A DNA stretch of 64,000 nt, from assembly GCA_016285885.1 (NCBI GenBank), contig JAEERP010000001.1, forward strand, positions 744,001 through 808,000. The letters run 5' to 3'. The DNA is from Paludibacteraceae bacterium (GTDB taxonomy: Bacteria > Bacteroidota > Bacteroidia > Bacteroidales > Paludibacteraceae). A model generated the notes under the pieces. The model was not told the origin of the DNA and ran no database searches. It worked only from the letters and a program-made list of their open reading frames with translations. The translations under genes were made by a program, and so were the position numbers. Within the stretch, counting starts at the first letter, position 1; each line of letters begins with the position of its first letter. Positions 52,583 to 56,056 of the stretch are shown here, piece after piece.

Positions 52583-52671
52583 ACAGGGGGTGACACCCCT
52601 GTCTGTGATATGTCGCCCACAACCTAGGGCGTTGCCCATGGGCTATATCTGTTTAGGCCTTGCAGACCAAT
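52583..52671 (+). repeat. 89-bp intergenic repeat, copy 1 (left edge of the immunity island)
   Basis: Starts ACAGGGGGTGACACCCC and ends GCCTTGCAGACCAAT. It matches the copy at 55788-55876 at 86 of 89 positions, same orientation. Internal complementary segments (GGGGTGACACCCC; GCCCATGGGC) allow folding. No coding potential. Confidence 0.9.
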
Positions 52672-52723
52672 ATGCACAGTCCTTGAGGAAGTGCTTAATT
52701 CTTACCAACCTCTTAACTCTTAA

Positions 52724-53131
52724 TCATTGCAGGTCGTTATTTCTTGCCCACACGTCAAGAATATTAATATAATCGGCACAGAATACAAAAACACATTCGC
52801 CACTAGCACACTTCCCAATCACACTCTTTTTGCCAGTAGAGTCCATCCCGATTGACAACGAAAAATGTTCGTTGCGTAAAAGATTCAGATTCATAAACCG
52901 ATATTGAATATTCTCAGAAAAATCCATGGAAACACATATGTTTTTGATACCATTTACCCTCCACTTCTCAGGAATAACTTTGGGCAGTTTGCACAATTCA
53001 AAAACCATGACTACCCAATCAGGTCTCCATTCAATGCTCAAAAGTATTATGTCGCTTAAATCCGGTATCTCTCCTTTGAATATCGAACAAACCTTTCGTT
53101 GACTATCTACCTGTAAACAATCCGTCCACAT
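52724..53131 (-). CDS. Imm50-like immunity protein, paralogue A
   Basis: 135-residue cytoplasmic protein without signal peptide. It aligns along its length with the next gene: DLSDIILLSIEWRPDWVVMVFEL, then P..IPEKW, then ISMDFSENIQYRFMNLN, then a short acidic tail. The pattern (an SI-type strand, a Pro-rich turn before KW, then two strands) recalls the Imm50 family of polymorphic-toxin immunity proteins. That assignment is from memory and tentative. No toxin gene adjoins it. It is the last gene of a minus-strand run of small accessory genes. Confidence 0.5.
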   Translation of the reverse strand: MWTDCLQVDSQRKVCSIFKGEIPDLSDIILLSIEWRPDWVVMVFELCKLPKVIPEKWRVNGIKNICVSMDFSENIQYRFMNLNLLRNEHFSLSIGMDSTGKKSVIGKCASGECVFVFCADYINILDVWARNNDLQ

Positions 53132-53193
53132 CTAAAATTTCTATTTTGTATTAACAAAAACATTTCACCAAACATCCGAGCCCCAACAGGTAC

Positions 53194-53604
53194 TTAATCC
53201 AACCGATGATCCACATAACCAAAATACGACACCGTAACGCAAAAAGTTGTCAGCTCAAATATCAATTGTCCCACACCAGTTTTAGCCTTCATGTTAAATT
53301 CTCCATCGTCTGAGACCTCTATATCAATCGAGCAATGATCATTATCATAAAGACAATTAAAATCCGTGTATTTAAAAAGAACATTTTTCATCGAGAAATC
53401 AAGATAAATCCCACAATACTGTTTGTCTGGTATCCAACCTTCAGGCAAAGGAGTTGGCCAATCATAATATTCGATTTGAACCACATACTCATTTTTGACA
53501 TAATCCATTTTCAAACCTAATAAAACGGCATCGTGAAAGCGAGGGGATATATCACCATACAATCGCTTAATTTCCAAATTATTACCAATCCTATTCAACC
53601 ACAT
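53194..53604 (-). CDS. Imm50-like immunity protein, paralogue B
   Basis: 136 residues, cytoplasmic. WLNRIGNNLEIKRLYGDISP at the start, then FHDAVLLGLKMDYVKNEYVVQIEYYD, PLPEGW, GIYLDFSMKNVLFKYTDFN: same order of elements as paralogue A, with roughly a quarter to a third of residues shared by eye, so an old duplication or separate acquisition rather than a recent copy. The N-terminal W..I...L....G..P arrangement is the closer match to Imm50. Confidence 0.55.
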   Translation of the reverse strand: MWLNRIGNNLEIKRLYGDISPRFHDAVLLGLKMDYVKNEYVVQIEYYDWPTPLPEGWIPDKQYCGIYLDFSMKNVLFKYTDFNCLYDNDHCSIDIEVSDDGEFNMKAKTGVGQLIFELTTFCVTVSYFGYVDHRLD

Positions 53605-53672
53605 ATCCTATGCAATTAAAGAATACCGATTACACAAATATTATTCACCAGCTCAATCATTATATCTCATTT

Positions 53673-54221
53673 TCAATCCTCATCCACACACGCAAAATCG
53701 TCCAATTCCTTTTTCAAACTGACATCGCCATCAAGACATATGGTCCATTTCTCATGATGGATCAATTCTCTATCGTTATTTAGATACATATTAAAAGTTG
53801 ACCATTGAGAGAAATCGCAATAGACTTTATCGTCAGATTTGTAGAAATGAAGCCGTATAAACATGTCATACCATGCCCTTAACTTGAAAAAGCCACAAAC
53901 CCTATAAGCGGAATCGTGCTTCAGCAGGAAACGATGTTCCCCATATTCCTGTCTGAACAGAAAAAAGGAACCTTCACCGTTATACAATTCACGTCTTTCA
54001 TAATAGCACGGCGTGCGATGTTCTTTACGATATTGACGTAATTGACTAGGCGTCATCTCTCTTTCCTGATACAAATAGATCTTCAGCTGGCTCTCTAGTT
54101 CCTTGTCCGCGCTAATCCACACGACATTCAACGGCACGAAATAGACAAACACGAGGAACAAGGGAAACAAACTTGCCAAAAGCGCTATCAATACTATTAT
54201 TTTCTTTTTCGTTAGCTTCAT
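53673..54221 (-). CDS. uncharacterised single-pass membrane protein
   Basis: I do not recognise the family. 182 residues: a basic start (MKLTKKK), one strong membrane helix (about 8-31), then an extracytoplasmic domain of about 145 residues rich in Tyr, Phe and charged residues and ending in an acidic tail (DDFACVDED). It lies 16 bp behind the FSMPD-CdiI_2 fusion gene on the same strand, so it is probably co-expressed with it. A membrane-anchored immunity or accessory function is possible but unproven. Confidence 0.6.
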   Translation of the reverse strand: MKLTKKKIIVLIALLASLFPLFLVFVYFVPLNVVWISADKELESQLKIYLYQEREMTPSQLRQYRKEHRTPCYYERRELYNGEGSFFLFRQEYGEHRFLLKHDSAYRVCGFFKLRAWYDMFIRLHFYKSDDKVYCDFSQWSTFNMYLNNDRELIHHEKWTICLDGDVSLKKELDDFACVDED

Positions 54222-54237
54222 ACGTTATAATTCTTAA

Positions 54238-55326
54238 TTACTTACCAAAAGCTCCAGCGCCACAAAAGGACCCAAACTCAGGAATCAGTCCCTTTTCAAG
54301 CCTATACCACTTCAAGCGTTCCCGATTCTCCTCAAAGATTTTTATCACGGTCTCTTTCTCTGCACCATGTGAAGCCCAATAATCCGCCGCATTGTATATA
54401 TCGTCTATAGACGTCAAAACGTTAGACAACAAATCTCCTTCGTAAAACTCAACCCCGATGAATGGTTTCACCTTGAGGATCTCTATCGCAACTGGCATAA
54501 CATACTCAATGATAGCGGATTGACGAATCAGGAAAGCGATGTCCGAGGCGGTAAAATCCTTGATCGGAACATGGTATAAATGATAATACCGCATGCCTAT
54601 CCTATCCCATGTTGGGACCTCACCCTTCCATGGCCCCATGATCCGCTCCATGGTGCTCTCTTCCGTCACTTCCATGAGTATTCCTCTTCGGACTTTTGGG
54701 GTCATGTTGGCGACCGCACGAATCGGCACCCCCCAATAACGACTCTCAGAAGAAAGAGATGTTGACCAGTCAGAGAAATCCAATCTACACGCTTCATTAC
54801 TAACCATATCGGTCGCCAAAGAGGCTGACCAGTAACAACCACTGTCGTACTTCTCCCCTAAAACAGGGAAAAATATCTCTTGGAGATTCTTTTTAGAGAC
54901 ACCAATAAACCCTGCCACTTCCGATTCATTAAATGGACCCACAGGAATCCATTCGCAACCATCCAACAACTCCATCATATCCTCGATAGTCGGCATACTC
55001 CAGAACTCACCCCAATGGCACCTGACGGCATCATCCTCATCATCCAGCAAAATCTTATTATCCACAACTCCACTCTCCTTGTCAAAGACATATTTGCTGA
55101 AGGTGTACATCTCACCGGGCTCGTAATTCACACCGAACTTATAATTCGATGCAATGTACTGCGACTTGGGTTGAGTCTCTCCCCATGCGAAAAAATCGCC
55201 CGTCTCATACGGAGAAGAGGCACCTATATTGCAGTTCGCCCACAGATTACCGCTAGGTAATCCAAGGTCCACATAGTCATGACCTGCCAATTGTCCATCC
55301 GGATTGTTTATATATTTATATTTCAT
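54238..55326 (-). CDS. fusion: FSMPD/DUF1566-like domain + CdiI_2-like immunity domain
   Basis: 362 residues, no signal peptide. Residues about 15-208 match the Bacteroidetes form of the Fibrobacter-succinogenes-major/DUF1566-like domain: YVDLGLPSGNLWANCNIGAS, GDFFAWGETQPKS, DDAVRCHWGEFWSMPT, YWSASL, WGVPIRAV. After a short link, residues about 213-362 resemble contact-dependent inhibition immunity proteins (CdiI_2): W.GEVPTWDRIGMRYYHLYHVPIKDFT, DIAFLIRQSAIIEYVMPVAIEIL, GVEFYEGDLLSNVL. FSMPD domains usually sit on secreted proteins, so a cytoplasmic fusion to an immunity domain is unexpected. Partner toxin unknown. Sequence is continuous with no frameshift. Confidence 0.72.
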   Translation of the reverse strand: MKYKYINNPDGQLAGHDYVDLGLPSGNLWANCNIGASSPYETGDFFAWGETQPKSQYIASNYKFGVNYEPGEMYTFSKYVFDKESGVVDNKILLDDEDDAVRCHWGEFWSMPTIEDMMELLDGCEWIPVGPFNESEVAGFIGVSKKNLQEIFFPVLGEKYDSGCYWSASLATDMVSNEACRLDFSDWSTSLSSESRYWGVPIRAVANMTPKVRRGILMEVTEESTMERIMGPWKGEVPTWDRIGMRYYHLYHVPIKDFTASDIAFLIRQSAIIEYVMPVAIEILKVKPFIGVEFYEGDLLSNVLTSIDDIYNAADYWASHGAEKETVIKIFEENRERLKWYRLEKGLIPEFGSFCGAGAFGK

Positions 55327-55330
55327 GGGT

Positions 55331-55720
55331 TCAGAAGTTTTTAATTCTTCTTTTAGATTTCAAAACCCTAATCAACAAGGCAATCAAAGCTGAAATTAAT
55401 AAAAGTCCCGATCTATATGGAGTGTACTGGAAACCCGACATACTAACAAAGGTAACAAAAATAAACAGAGAACAAACAAAGACAATCCATACGGACTTCC
55501 TGCTCCCTTTGAAGAAAAAGGTTGAAATGGGATTACCGAAAGCCACAAGGACGCATAACAGACCCAAAGAATACCTGTAGAGCAATCCCCATCCCAAATC
55601 CGGCTTAGCGGATAGGAAGTGTTGTCGAATATGCAATGCTATTTCACAGATTAACAAATACGTAACAATCTGAATCAGACTCACAATCAGTGTTTTTATC
55701 CAAGGTTTCAACTCAGCCAT
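55331..55720 (-). CDS. uncharacterised four-helix membrane protein
   Basis: 129 residues with four predicted membrane helices (about 9-28, 45-64, 74-95, 102-120) and a basic C-terminus (KSKRRIKNF). No family recognised. It is the first gene of the minus-strand accessory run; its stop lies 4 bp before the fusion gene start. A membrane immunity protein against a pore-forming toxin would fit size and context, but nothing in the sequence proves this. Confidence 0.6.
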   Translation of the reverse strand: MAELKPWIKTLIVSLIQIVTYLLICEIALHIRQHFLSAKPDLGWGLLYRYSLGLLCVLVAFGNPISTFFFKGSRKSVWIVFVCSLFIFVTFVSMSGFQYTPYRSGLLLISALIALLIRVLKSKRRIKNF

Positions 55721-56056
55721 TTCTATCTTGTTTTTAATTTTGTTTCACCCCTTCGGGGTTCCAATACCGTCCGTCACCGTTTACAAAACAGGGGTTGACA
55801 CCCCAGCCTGTGATATGTCGCCCACAACCTAGGGCGTTGCCCATGGGCTATATCTGTTTAGGCCTTGCAGACCAATTAACGTGATGCCACAAGTCCCGAA
55901 GGGACGATATATTATAGACAGGGGGGTATGCTAAATTTTCCAATCTTAAATGAAAATTCTGTTCTCATATCGATTGAATTTTGGCCTTGTTTTTCTAACC
56001 TTTCAGGCATTAGAAATCTCCTTTGTAGAAGGGACATCGGGACATCTCCGCAACAA
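55721..56056. other. intergenic region with repeat copy 2 and small hairpins
   Basis: No gene seen. It holds ACCCCTTCGGGGT (about 55747-55759), the second 89-bp repeat (55788-55876), then AGTCCCGAAGGGAC (about 55893-55906) and a stretch of purine runs. These short GC palindromes typify Bacteroidetes intergenic repeats. Confidence 0.7.
55788..55876 (+). repeat. 89-bp intergenic repeat, copy 2 (right edge of the immunity island)
   Basis: Starts ACAGGGGTTGACACCCC, ends GCCTTGCAGACCAAT; differs from copy 1 at three positions near its left end. Same orientation, 3.2 kb apart, with the accessory gene run between. Confidence 0.9.

What the first reader, a model, noticed from the sequence alone, without database searches (positions are those of the whole stretch)
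52583..55876. Orphan immunity-gene island bounded by two 89-bp direct repeats
Between two repeats matching at 86 of 89 positions in the same orientation lie five minus-strand genes: two Imm50-like paralogues, a single-pass membrane protein, an FSMPD + CdiI_2-like fusion and a four-helix membrane protein. There is no toxin, secretion gene or integrase. Direct repeats at both ends of an accessory block suggest gain by recombination between dispersed repeats. The set could be an acquired defence against neighbours' toxins, similar in idea to the acquired interbacterial defence clusters described in gut Bacteroidales.
Basis: partly seen in the sequence, partly recalled or inferred. Interest (0 to 1): 0.75.

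Follow-up and report, generated by a model that had tools for sequence, protein, structure and literature searches.

The report
Orphan toxin-immunity gene cluster
A gut bacterium related to strains from grazing animals carries a small set of toxin-antidote genes without the matching toxins, probably to survive toxins injected by neighbours; such sets are known, but here likely toxin partners of two of the genes could be traced in sister species.

Summary
In detail: five co-oriented minus-strand genes (52724-55720) lie between two 89-bp direct repeats matching at 86 of 89 positions. Named same-genus relatives are mostly Paludibacteraceae MAGs from rumen, omasum and horse faeces.

The immunity reading is largely right. 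Gene 4 carries a CdiI_3 domain (not CdiI_2). In G006 its homologue sits 36 bp behind an Rhs-like ORF ending in Ntox28, the toxin family that CdiI of E. coli 536 neutralises. The homologue of the single-pass membrane gene overlaps the 3' end of an Rhs-core gene in G013. The four-helix gene is fused to that family in G001, G005 and G011. One Imm50-like gene passes Pfam's cut-off; its paralogue does not. Neither traced toxin domain was found in the window's genome. This looks like a small heterogeneous polyimmunity locus, a known kind.

The origin story is weaker. The repeat is a dispersed family whose direct pairs also bracket other gene blocks. No empty site was found. G010 keeps the membrane gene and a decayed copy of the CdiI_3 gene at the same place, so part of the cluster is probably old there. 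In three relatives the site is repeat-bounded with other cargo. No recombinase was seen among nine flank proteins scanned, so rAID membership is not met.

The parts
52583..52671 (+). R1, 89-bp repeat: two dispersed modules (m1, positions 1-36; m2, positions 40-83)
   Evidence: modules 3443-3525 bp downstream of the atpG stop
52724..53131 (-). imm50a, 135 aa, Imm50 immunity protein (predicted soluble)
   Evidence: Pfam PF15594 28.1 bits, cut-off 27.1; apart from imm50b no match in the 16 genus genomes or in a 393-genome order sample that includes its own
53194..53604 (-). imm50b, 136 aa, diverged paralogue of imm50a, below the Imm50 cut-off
   Evidence: Pfam 16 bits, E 0.013; 26% identical to imm50a
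53673..54221 (-). mem182: N-terminal membrane helix plus mostly-beta domain; predicted membrane-anchored immunity protein
   Evidence: homologue overlaps by 20 nt the 3' end of an Rhs-core ORF in G013; dN/dS 0.18-0.27; best model pLDDT 69.5, the other four 38-53
54238..55326 (-). 362-aa fusion: N-terminal FSMPD-like domain plus C-terminal CdiI_3 immunity domain (Pfam match 246-306; conserved stretch about 211-345)
   Evidence: Pfam PF18616 E 3.6e-16; PDB 5j5v CdiI E 3.6e-5; top Foldseek hits 5j5v C and F, E 0.097 and 0.11; homologue behind an Rhs-like Ntox28 ORF in G006
55331..55720 (-). mem129: four-helix membrane protein, possible partner of mem182
   Evidence: fused to the mem182 family as one 278-aa ORF in G001, G005 and G011 (43-45% identity); absent from the mem182 loci of G002, G010 and G013; four hydrophobic stretches
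55788..55876 (+). R2, second copy of the 89-bp repeat, at the 5' end of the gene cluster
   Evidence: repeat modules at a comparable place, 381-626 bp downstream of the atpG stop, in G005, G007 and G010
56050..56100 (-). hairpin and T-run, likely terminator of the atp operon, separating it from the cluster
   Evidence: RNA fold -19.2 kcal/mol, z -4.58; its arms are conserved in G001, G005, G007, G010 (alignment)

Best explanation
The block is a small heterogeneous polyimmunity locus: immunity genes for Rhs-type polymorphic toxins, kept without their toxins. Its products most likely neutralise toxins delivered by neighbouring relatives. The CdiI_3 domain of the 362-aa protein would bind and block an Ntox28-type RNase in the cytoplasm. 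mem182 (one membrane helix, then a domain that is periplasmic by the positive-inside rule), perhaps with mem129 (four helices), would block a toxin acting at or in the inner membrane or periplasm. The two Imm50-like proteins would each block a nuclease-type toxin (Imm50 is listed with Tox-HHH and Ntox24 in PMC3482391). Steps shown by sequence: homology, pairing with toxin ORFs in relatives, gene fusion, no match for the two traced toxin domains in this genome, purifying selection on mem182, and movement of mem182 between species. Steps inferred: binding, protection, co-transcription and delivery route. The site downstream of atpG appears to collect and lose such genes over time.
For: CdiI_3 domain by Pfam, PDB sequence and fold. 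In G006 a fusion homologue (52% over 351 residues) follows by 36 bp an Rhs-like ORF with Ntox28 (25.7 bits, cut-off 25), the same pairing of toxin and immunity family as in E. coli 536 (passages of PMC5562914 and PMC9086364). In G013 a mem182 homologue overlaps a 368-aa Rhs-core ORF by 20 nt, in an array with four Rhs cores in 11.9 kb. mem129-mem182 fusion in G001, G005, G011. Own genome shows no match to either toxin domain but holds other Rhs toxins, Ntox21 and Tox-REase-5. No Rhs core in the 64-kb window. Co-oriented genes with gaps of 4-68 bp and low G+C, 40.4% inside versus 47% for the window. mem182 dN/dS 0.18-0.27. mem182 is 83% identical in DNA between G000 and G002 (dS 0.49), while atpA and atpF of that pair have dS 1.59 and 2.06 and atpH and atpB are saturated.
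Against: Rhs cores were found at only 3 of 6 loci of the CdiI_3 fusion (G001, G010, G006; not G005, G007, nor the 2.9 kb held for G011) and at 1 of 6 loci of mem182 (G013). In G006 the Ntox28 match is only just above its cut-off, the Rhs core is below its own (22.3 vs 32.5 bits), the ORF is cut by the contig end, and the toxin domain has no PDB match (best E 0.68). In G013 the toxin domain has no Pfam match. A profile from six fusion homologues scored 5j5v worse (E 0.16) than the window protein alone. imm50b is below the Pfam cut-off. mem129 is missing from 3 of 6 mem182 loci, the toxin-adjacent one in G013 among them. The genome is a draft, and its Rhs places lie at contig ends (C6:187, C12:182, C12:370031 of 373097), so a missing toxin could be an assembly gap. 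No expression or protection data exist.
Confidence: 0.77

Rival explanations
1. Remnant of a former Rhs toxin locus: toxin genes were displaced or deleted in place and the immunity genes stayed behind, rather than being collected at a neutral site.
For: Rhs arrays in G006, G010 and G013 mix Rhs-core toxin ends with small genes, and G001 has one Rhs core in the fusion locus; displacement is the published model for Vibrio immunity arrays (passages of PMC5361080); a decayed fusion copy at the G010 site shows gene decay there.
Against: No Rhs core in the 64-kb window nor in the stretches beyond atpG of G001, G005, G007 or G010; unrelated immunity families are mixed; mem182 also occurs away from Rhs cores in G001, G002 and G005.
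Confidence: 0.15
2. Recent acquisition as one cassette by recombination between dispersed 89-bp repeats.
For: R1 and R2 are nearly identical while the other listed copies in the genome are partial matches of at most 93%; G005, G007 and G010 also have repeat modules on both sides of genes at this site, with other genes between; low G+C; mem182 moved between species.
Against: Direct repeats of this family also separate tandem paralogues elsewhere (L133, L136, L140); none was found in ten toxin-immunity or mem182 loci tested (L104-L112 and L117); G010 shares mem182 and a fusion remnant at the site at about the background divergence; no empty site seen.
Confidence: 0.2
3. Accessory genes of other function that merely reuse immunity-like domains; chance assembly at a variable site.
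For: imm50b, mem182 and mem129 pass no Pfam cut-off; neighbours at this site in relatives are an LRR_5 protein (one scanned) and proteins without a clear family.
Against: Two of five genes have homologues directly behind Rhs-type toxin ORFs, and two of five pass an immunity-family cut-off.
Confidence: 0.08

Closest known systems
Heterogeneous polyimmunity loci (PMC3482391, passages seen)
   Same: Tandem co-oriented immunity genes of unrelated families, short gaps, no toxin gene in between, content differing between relatives.
   Different: No recombinase seen among the flank proteins scanned (the paper reports one in several cases only); bounded by a dispersed 89-bp repeat; includes mem182/mem129, which have no accepted Pfam match.
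rAID systems of Bacteroidales (PMC12247911, passages seen)
   Same: Short co-oriented putative orphan immunity genes in a Bacteroidales; four of five genes are 129-182 codons and under 41% G+C.
   Different: No tyrosine recombinase in the flank proteins scanned; the fusion is 362 codons and 45.7% G+C; partner toxins traced here are Rhs-type ORFs whose delivery route is unknown; motifs between the genes were not sought.
CdiA-CT/CdiI of uropathogenic E. coli 536 (PDB 5J5V; Ntox28 toxin)
   Same: The CdiI_3 domain of the fusion matches this CdiI by sequence (E 3.6e-5) and as top fold match (E 0.097); the likely partner toxin in G006 is Ntox28 too.
   Different: Here the domain is fused to an N-terminal FSMPD-like domain and the toxin is carried by an Rhs-like ORF instead of CdiA; whether the toxin needs CysK is unknown.
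Orphan immunity arrays of Vibrio cholerae T6SS clusters (PMC5361080, passages seen)
   Same: Immunity genes retained without their effectors; transfer between strains by homologous recombination.
   Different: Those lie at the 3' end of T6SS clusters; this one lies next to the atp operon, with no secretion gene among the flank proteins scanned.

Membership tests
[quoted passage not shown]
   2 of 5 genes pass a Pfam immunity cut-off; mem182 by toxin adjacency in G013; mem129 by fusion to the mem182 family; imm50b below cut-off but paralogous
Heterogeneous polyimmunity locus | not interrupted by toxin genes | tested here: met
   no toxin family in the five proteins; no Rhs core in the 64-kb window
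Heterogeneous polyimmunity locus | same orientation, short intergenic distances | tested here: met
   all on minus strand; gaps 62, 68, 16, 4 bp
Heterogeneous polyimmunity locus | content differs between related genomes | tested here: met
   none of 12 same-genus relatives with sequence beyond atpG has the five-gene set there; G010 has mem182 plus a fusion remnant; the comparison is between species, not strains
rAID | predicted tyrosine recombinase next to the array | tested here: not met
   nine flanking window proteins (34.5-63.3 kb) scanned with Pfam, none a recombinase; other flank genes were only recognised by eye and the window left of 34.5 kb was not scanned
rAID | co-oriented genes of about 100-300 codons with less than 41% G+C | tested here: inconclusive
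   four of five genes 35.3-39.7% G+C and 129-182 codons; the fusion is 362 codons and 45.7%
rAID | conserved intergenic sequence motifs | not tested
   only the outer repeats were compared
CdiI_3 (PF18616) | passes curated cut-off | tested here: met
   59.3 bits vs 28; all 6 members of alignment A2, the window protein included, match at E<=1
CdiI_3 (PF18616) | partner toxin of the Ntox28 kind | tested here: met
   in G006 only, 1 of 6 relatives with a homologue: Ntox28 ORF 36 bp upstream, 25.7 bits vs cut-off 25
Imm50 (PF15594) | passes curated cut-off | tested here: inconclusive
   imm50a yes (28.1 vs 27.1), imm50b no (16)
Functional immunity proteins | protect a cell from a toxin | not testable with these tools
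   needs expression tests

The most novel reading that the evidence does not exclude
The stretch downstream of atpG is a recombinase-free exchange slot for competition genes: copies of a dispersed repeat at both edges let homologous recombination swap whole cargo blocks (orphan immunity genes in this species, an LRR_5 gene in G005 and G007, a mixture in G010) between herbivore-gut Paludibacteraceae, and mem129/mem182 is an undescribed membrane immunity family for an Rhs toxin.
Probability: 0.23. Interest if true: 0.65.

Novelty: new member of a known kind. Interest (0 to 1): 0.45.

Why it matters
In the papers I saw, orphan immunity arrays of Bacteroidales are described from human-gut T6SS contexts. 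Here one occurs in a genus whose named relatives come from herbivore guts, beside the atp operon, and for two of its genes likely toxin partners can be read in sister genomes, so orphan-immunity function becomes testable with defined pairs. It also points to a toxin-adjacent membrane protein family without an accepted Pfam match.

Tried and rejected
Island brought in with a recombined atpG: identity between G000 and G010 drops sharply inside atpG (56763-56687), which first suggested import of the island with the 3' end of atpG. Rejected: at lolE, tgt and lptG the two genomes are 82-88% identical, so the island side is at background and it is the atp operon side (97-100% in 150-bp windows) that stands out.

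Parabacteroides: my first working label for the genome, replaced after named the contigs of six relatives.

The large protein beside the fusion in G001, G005 and G007 was first noted as an Rhs-type protein; Pfam shows alpha-2-macroglobulin domains in the one scanned, G005.

rAID membership: no recombinase in the nine flank proteins scanned. AID-1 was not tested.

Bacteroidetes promoter pattern (recalled): no match between atpG and mem129; the nearest lies inside mem129; uninformative.

Hairpins in R1: not better than shuffles (z -0.97 and -1.25; m2 alone 0.04).

Structure: the fusion's N-terminal 258 residues are unreliable (pLDDT below 50); mem182 gives only weak beta-rich matches (best: transthyretin, E 0.018), not interpreted.

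Searches without useful result: PADLOC for five proteins; Imm50a on plasmids (none); PDB with mem182 and Imm50 profiles (best E 0.093 and 0.029, unrelated proteins); CdiI_3 domain on plasmids (15 records, 12 of them Streptomyces, all under 60% identity, none covering 80% of the query); papers on FSMPD plus immunity (0) and on Paludibacteraceae plus polymorphic toxin (0). Searches gave listings; only PMC3482391, PMC12247911, PMC5562914, PMC9086364 and PMC5361080 were opened, as passages.
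Full report
What is there. Two 89-bp direct repeats, R1 52583-52671 and R2 55788-55876, match at 86 of 89 positions and enclose five minus-strand ORFs of 135, 136, 182, 362 and 129 aa with gaps of 62, 68, 16 and 4 bp. The window is G000:C13:744001-808000 of a 3.75-Mb, 46-contig genome rated 100% complete. A genome-contig scan with the 182-aa family returned six loci: five titled Paludibacteraceae MAGs (yak rumen, yak omasum, sheep rumen, water-buffalo rumen, horse faeces) and one uncultured Bacteroidales MAG. 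Five have the contig lengths of G001, G002, G005, G010 and G013, and the sixth has the match at the same place as G011.

The proteins. Pfam gives CdiI_3 for the C-terminal part of the 362-aa protein (E 3.6e-16, 59.3 bits, cut-off 28), Imm50 for the 135-aa protein (28.1 bits, cut-off 27.1), a sub-threshold Imm50 for its 136-aa paralogue (16 bits), and nothing acceptable for the 182-aa and 129-aa membrane proteins. By sequence the CdiI_3 part matches the CdiI chain of PDB 5j5v (E 3.6e-5), although a six-sequence profile scored it worse (E 0.16). In an AlphaFold2 model of low overall confidence (mean pLDDT 39.4) the helical C-terminal part (about 260-357) is the better part, and its two best Foldseek matches in the PDB library are 5j5v C and F (E 0.097 and 0.11, probability 0.99 and 0.95; no match reaches E 0.001). 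5J5V is the E. coli 536 CdiA-CT/CdiI/CysK complex, and that toxin is of the Ntox28 RNase family (passages of PMC9086364 and PMC5562914). The N-terminal ~200 residues resemble a domain that matched in 24 of 295 order-level genomes, the own one included; its name FSMPD is recalled, and no library model matched the window protein there.

Partner toxins in sister species. The C-terminal domain was found in 6 of 15 same-genus relatives. In G006, on a 4.6-kb contig, the 365-aa homologue (52% over 351 residues) starts 36 bp after an ORF cut by the contig end that carries a sub-threshold Rhs core (22.3 bits, cut-off 32.5) and Ntox28 (25.7 bits, cut-off 25); it is followed by another ORF with an Rhs core by tblastn. 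The first 168 residues of the G006 toxin ORF match two Rhs places of the own genome at 48-50% and a third at 28%. Rhs cores were found by tblastn at three of six fusion loci: G006, G001 and G010; not in the 18-19 kb of G005 and G007 nor in the 2.9 kb held for G011. The 182-aa family occurs in 6 of 15 relatives. In G013 its homologue (8853-9320 of L112) overlaps by 20 nt the end of a 368-aa ORF (7766-8872) with an Rhs core (55.9 bits, cut-off 32.5), in a stretch with four Rhs cores; that ORF has no Pfam match. The other five mem182 loci show no Rhs core. In G001, G005 and G011 the 129-aa and 182-aa families are one 278-aa ORF, but at the mem182 loci of G002, G010 and G013 no mem129 homologue was found. 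So mem129 may act with mem182, without being indispensable.

Orphan status. [quoted passage not shown] elsewhere in the genus it matches only itself, a non-Ntox28 part in G015 and a 34-residue remnant in G010 (16 genomes). The toxin domain of G013 finds only itself (16 genomes). G000 has three Rhs-core places. One carries Ntox21 and is followed by a 181-aa gene, an FSMPD-like gene and an Imm26 gene; another carries Tox-REase-5. All three are near contig ends, so a cognate toxin lost in assembly cannot be excluded. Apart from imm50b, imm50a was matched in no genome: 0 of 15 same-genus relatives and 0 of 392 others in an order sample.

The site. atpG (window 56986-56108) and its likely terminator (z -4.58) lie beside R2. 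All fifteen same-genus relatives have atpG; in three (G008, G011, G013) the contig ends within 1.6 kb of the atpG stop, leaving 12. In G001, G005, G007 and G010 an accessory block lies between lptG and atpG (the names atpG, lptG, tgt, lolE, aspC and asnS are recalled from the sequence). In G005, G007 and G010 the repeat modules occur 381-626 bp after atpG and again at 2352-4802 bp, with LRR_5-like genes between (one such protein scanned, LRR_5 E 7.1e-20). The other eight, and G001, show no repeat at E<=0.05 in their fetched stretches apart from one short opposite-strand piece 4.6 kb away in G001. No empty site with the window's left flank was seen; PhoH, FolC, the C10 peptidase, IspD, asnS and the GLUG gene had no match in the same-genus stretches.

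Age and mobility. At the G010 site lie an intact mem182 (83.2% DNA identity, dS 0.61) and a decayed C-terminal piece of the fusion gene (74% DNA) that matches the window's gene but, at E<=1e-5, not the copies of G010's other locus, G006 or G005. Background identity of G000 and G010 is 82-88% at lolE, tgt and lptG (92% at aspC, 96% at groEL), so part of the cluster was probably already at this place in a common ancestor. mem182 of G002 sits at another locus and is 83% identical in DNA to the window's gene (dS 0.49), although core genes of that pair are far more diverged: atpA dS 1.59, atpF 2.06, atpH and atpB saturated. The 168-aa gene beside mem182 is 99.4% identical between G010 and G002. Such genes therefore appear to move between species. 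mem182 dN/dS of 0.18-0.27 in three pairs indicates maintenance.

The repeats. Thirty matches in G000 at E<=0.001; only R1 and R2 match over all 89 bases. The family occurs in 11 of 16 genus genomes at E<=0.01. In L133, L136 and L140 its modules lie in direct orientation among tandem paralogues, on the strand opposite to those genes, as here; in L141-L144 they are mixed and near other genes. No copy was found at E<=0.01 in the toxin-immunity and mem182 loci L104-L112 and L117. Repeat-mediated exchange is possible but not shown.

Mechanism proposed. Orphan immunity: the immunity proteins bind incoming toxin domains. CdiI_3 against an Ntox28 RNase in the cytoplasm rests on homology and one pair in G006. 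mem182, perhaps with mem129, against a membrane or periplasmic toxin rests on topology and on adjacency in G013. Imm50 against nuclease toxins rests on the family table of PMC3482391 (passages). Expression, binding and the delivery of the Rhs toxins are unknown.

Known kind. The locus meets several features listed for polyimmunity loci in PMC3482391 (passages) and no recombinase, which defines rAID (passages of PMC12247911), was found in nine flank proteins. It is ordinary in kind; the CdiI_3 fusion, the traced partners and the membrane genes are the fresh parts.

Noticed in passing
window 56687-64000: The atp operon is 97-100% identical to G010 in 150-bp windows from 56830 to about 60.1 kb (97.9% by BLAST over 56048-63997), against 82-88% at lolE, tgt and lptG; the switch lies inside atpG between 56763 and 56687. 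Looks like a recent between-species replacement, or a chimeric contig.
   Followed up: partly
G000:C8:231000-246000 (L140), G000:C8:120000-132000 (L136), G000:C13:172000-186000 (L133): The same repeat modules sit among tandem paralogous genes in fixed orientation, suggesting repeat-linked gene amplification.
   Followed up: partly
G000:C6:1-6300 (L117): A second toxin-immunity array: Rhs-Ntox21 gene, then 181-aa, FSMPD-like, Imm26 and further small genes; the FSMPD-like domain recurs as a stand-alone gene there and beside a fusion gene in G001.
   Followed up: partly
L104, L105, L106: In G001, G005 and G007 the CdiI_3 fusion lies close to a ~1970-aa gene; the G005 protein has bacterial alpha-2-macroglobulin domains and a TonB plug domain.
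   Followed up: no
L107:3247-4437: An Rhs-like ORF in G010 with an Ntox44 end (29.8 bits, cut-off 24) in the same array as a CdiI_3 fusion.
   Followed up: no
G010:C4:125817-125918 (L131): A short remnant, with a stop, resembling the last 34 residues of the G006 Ntox28 ORF at 65%.
   Followed up: no
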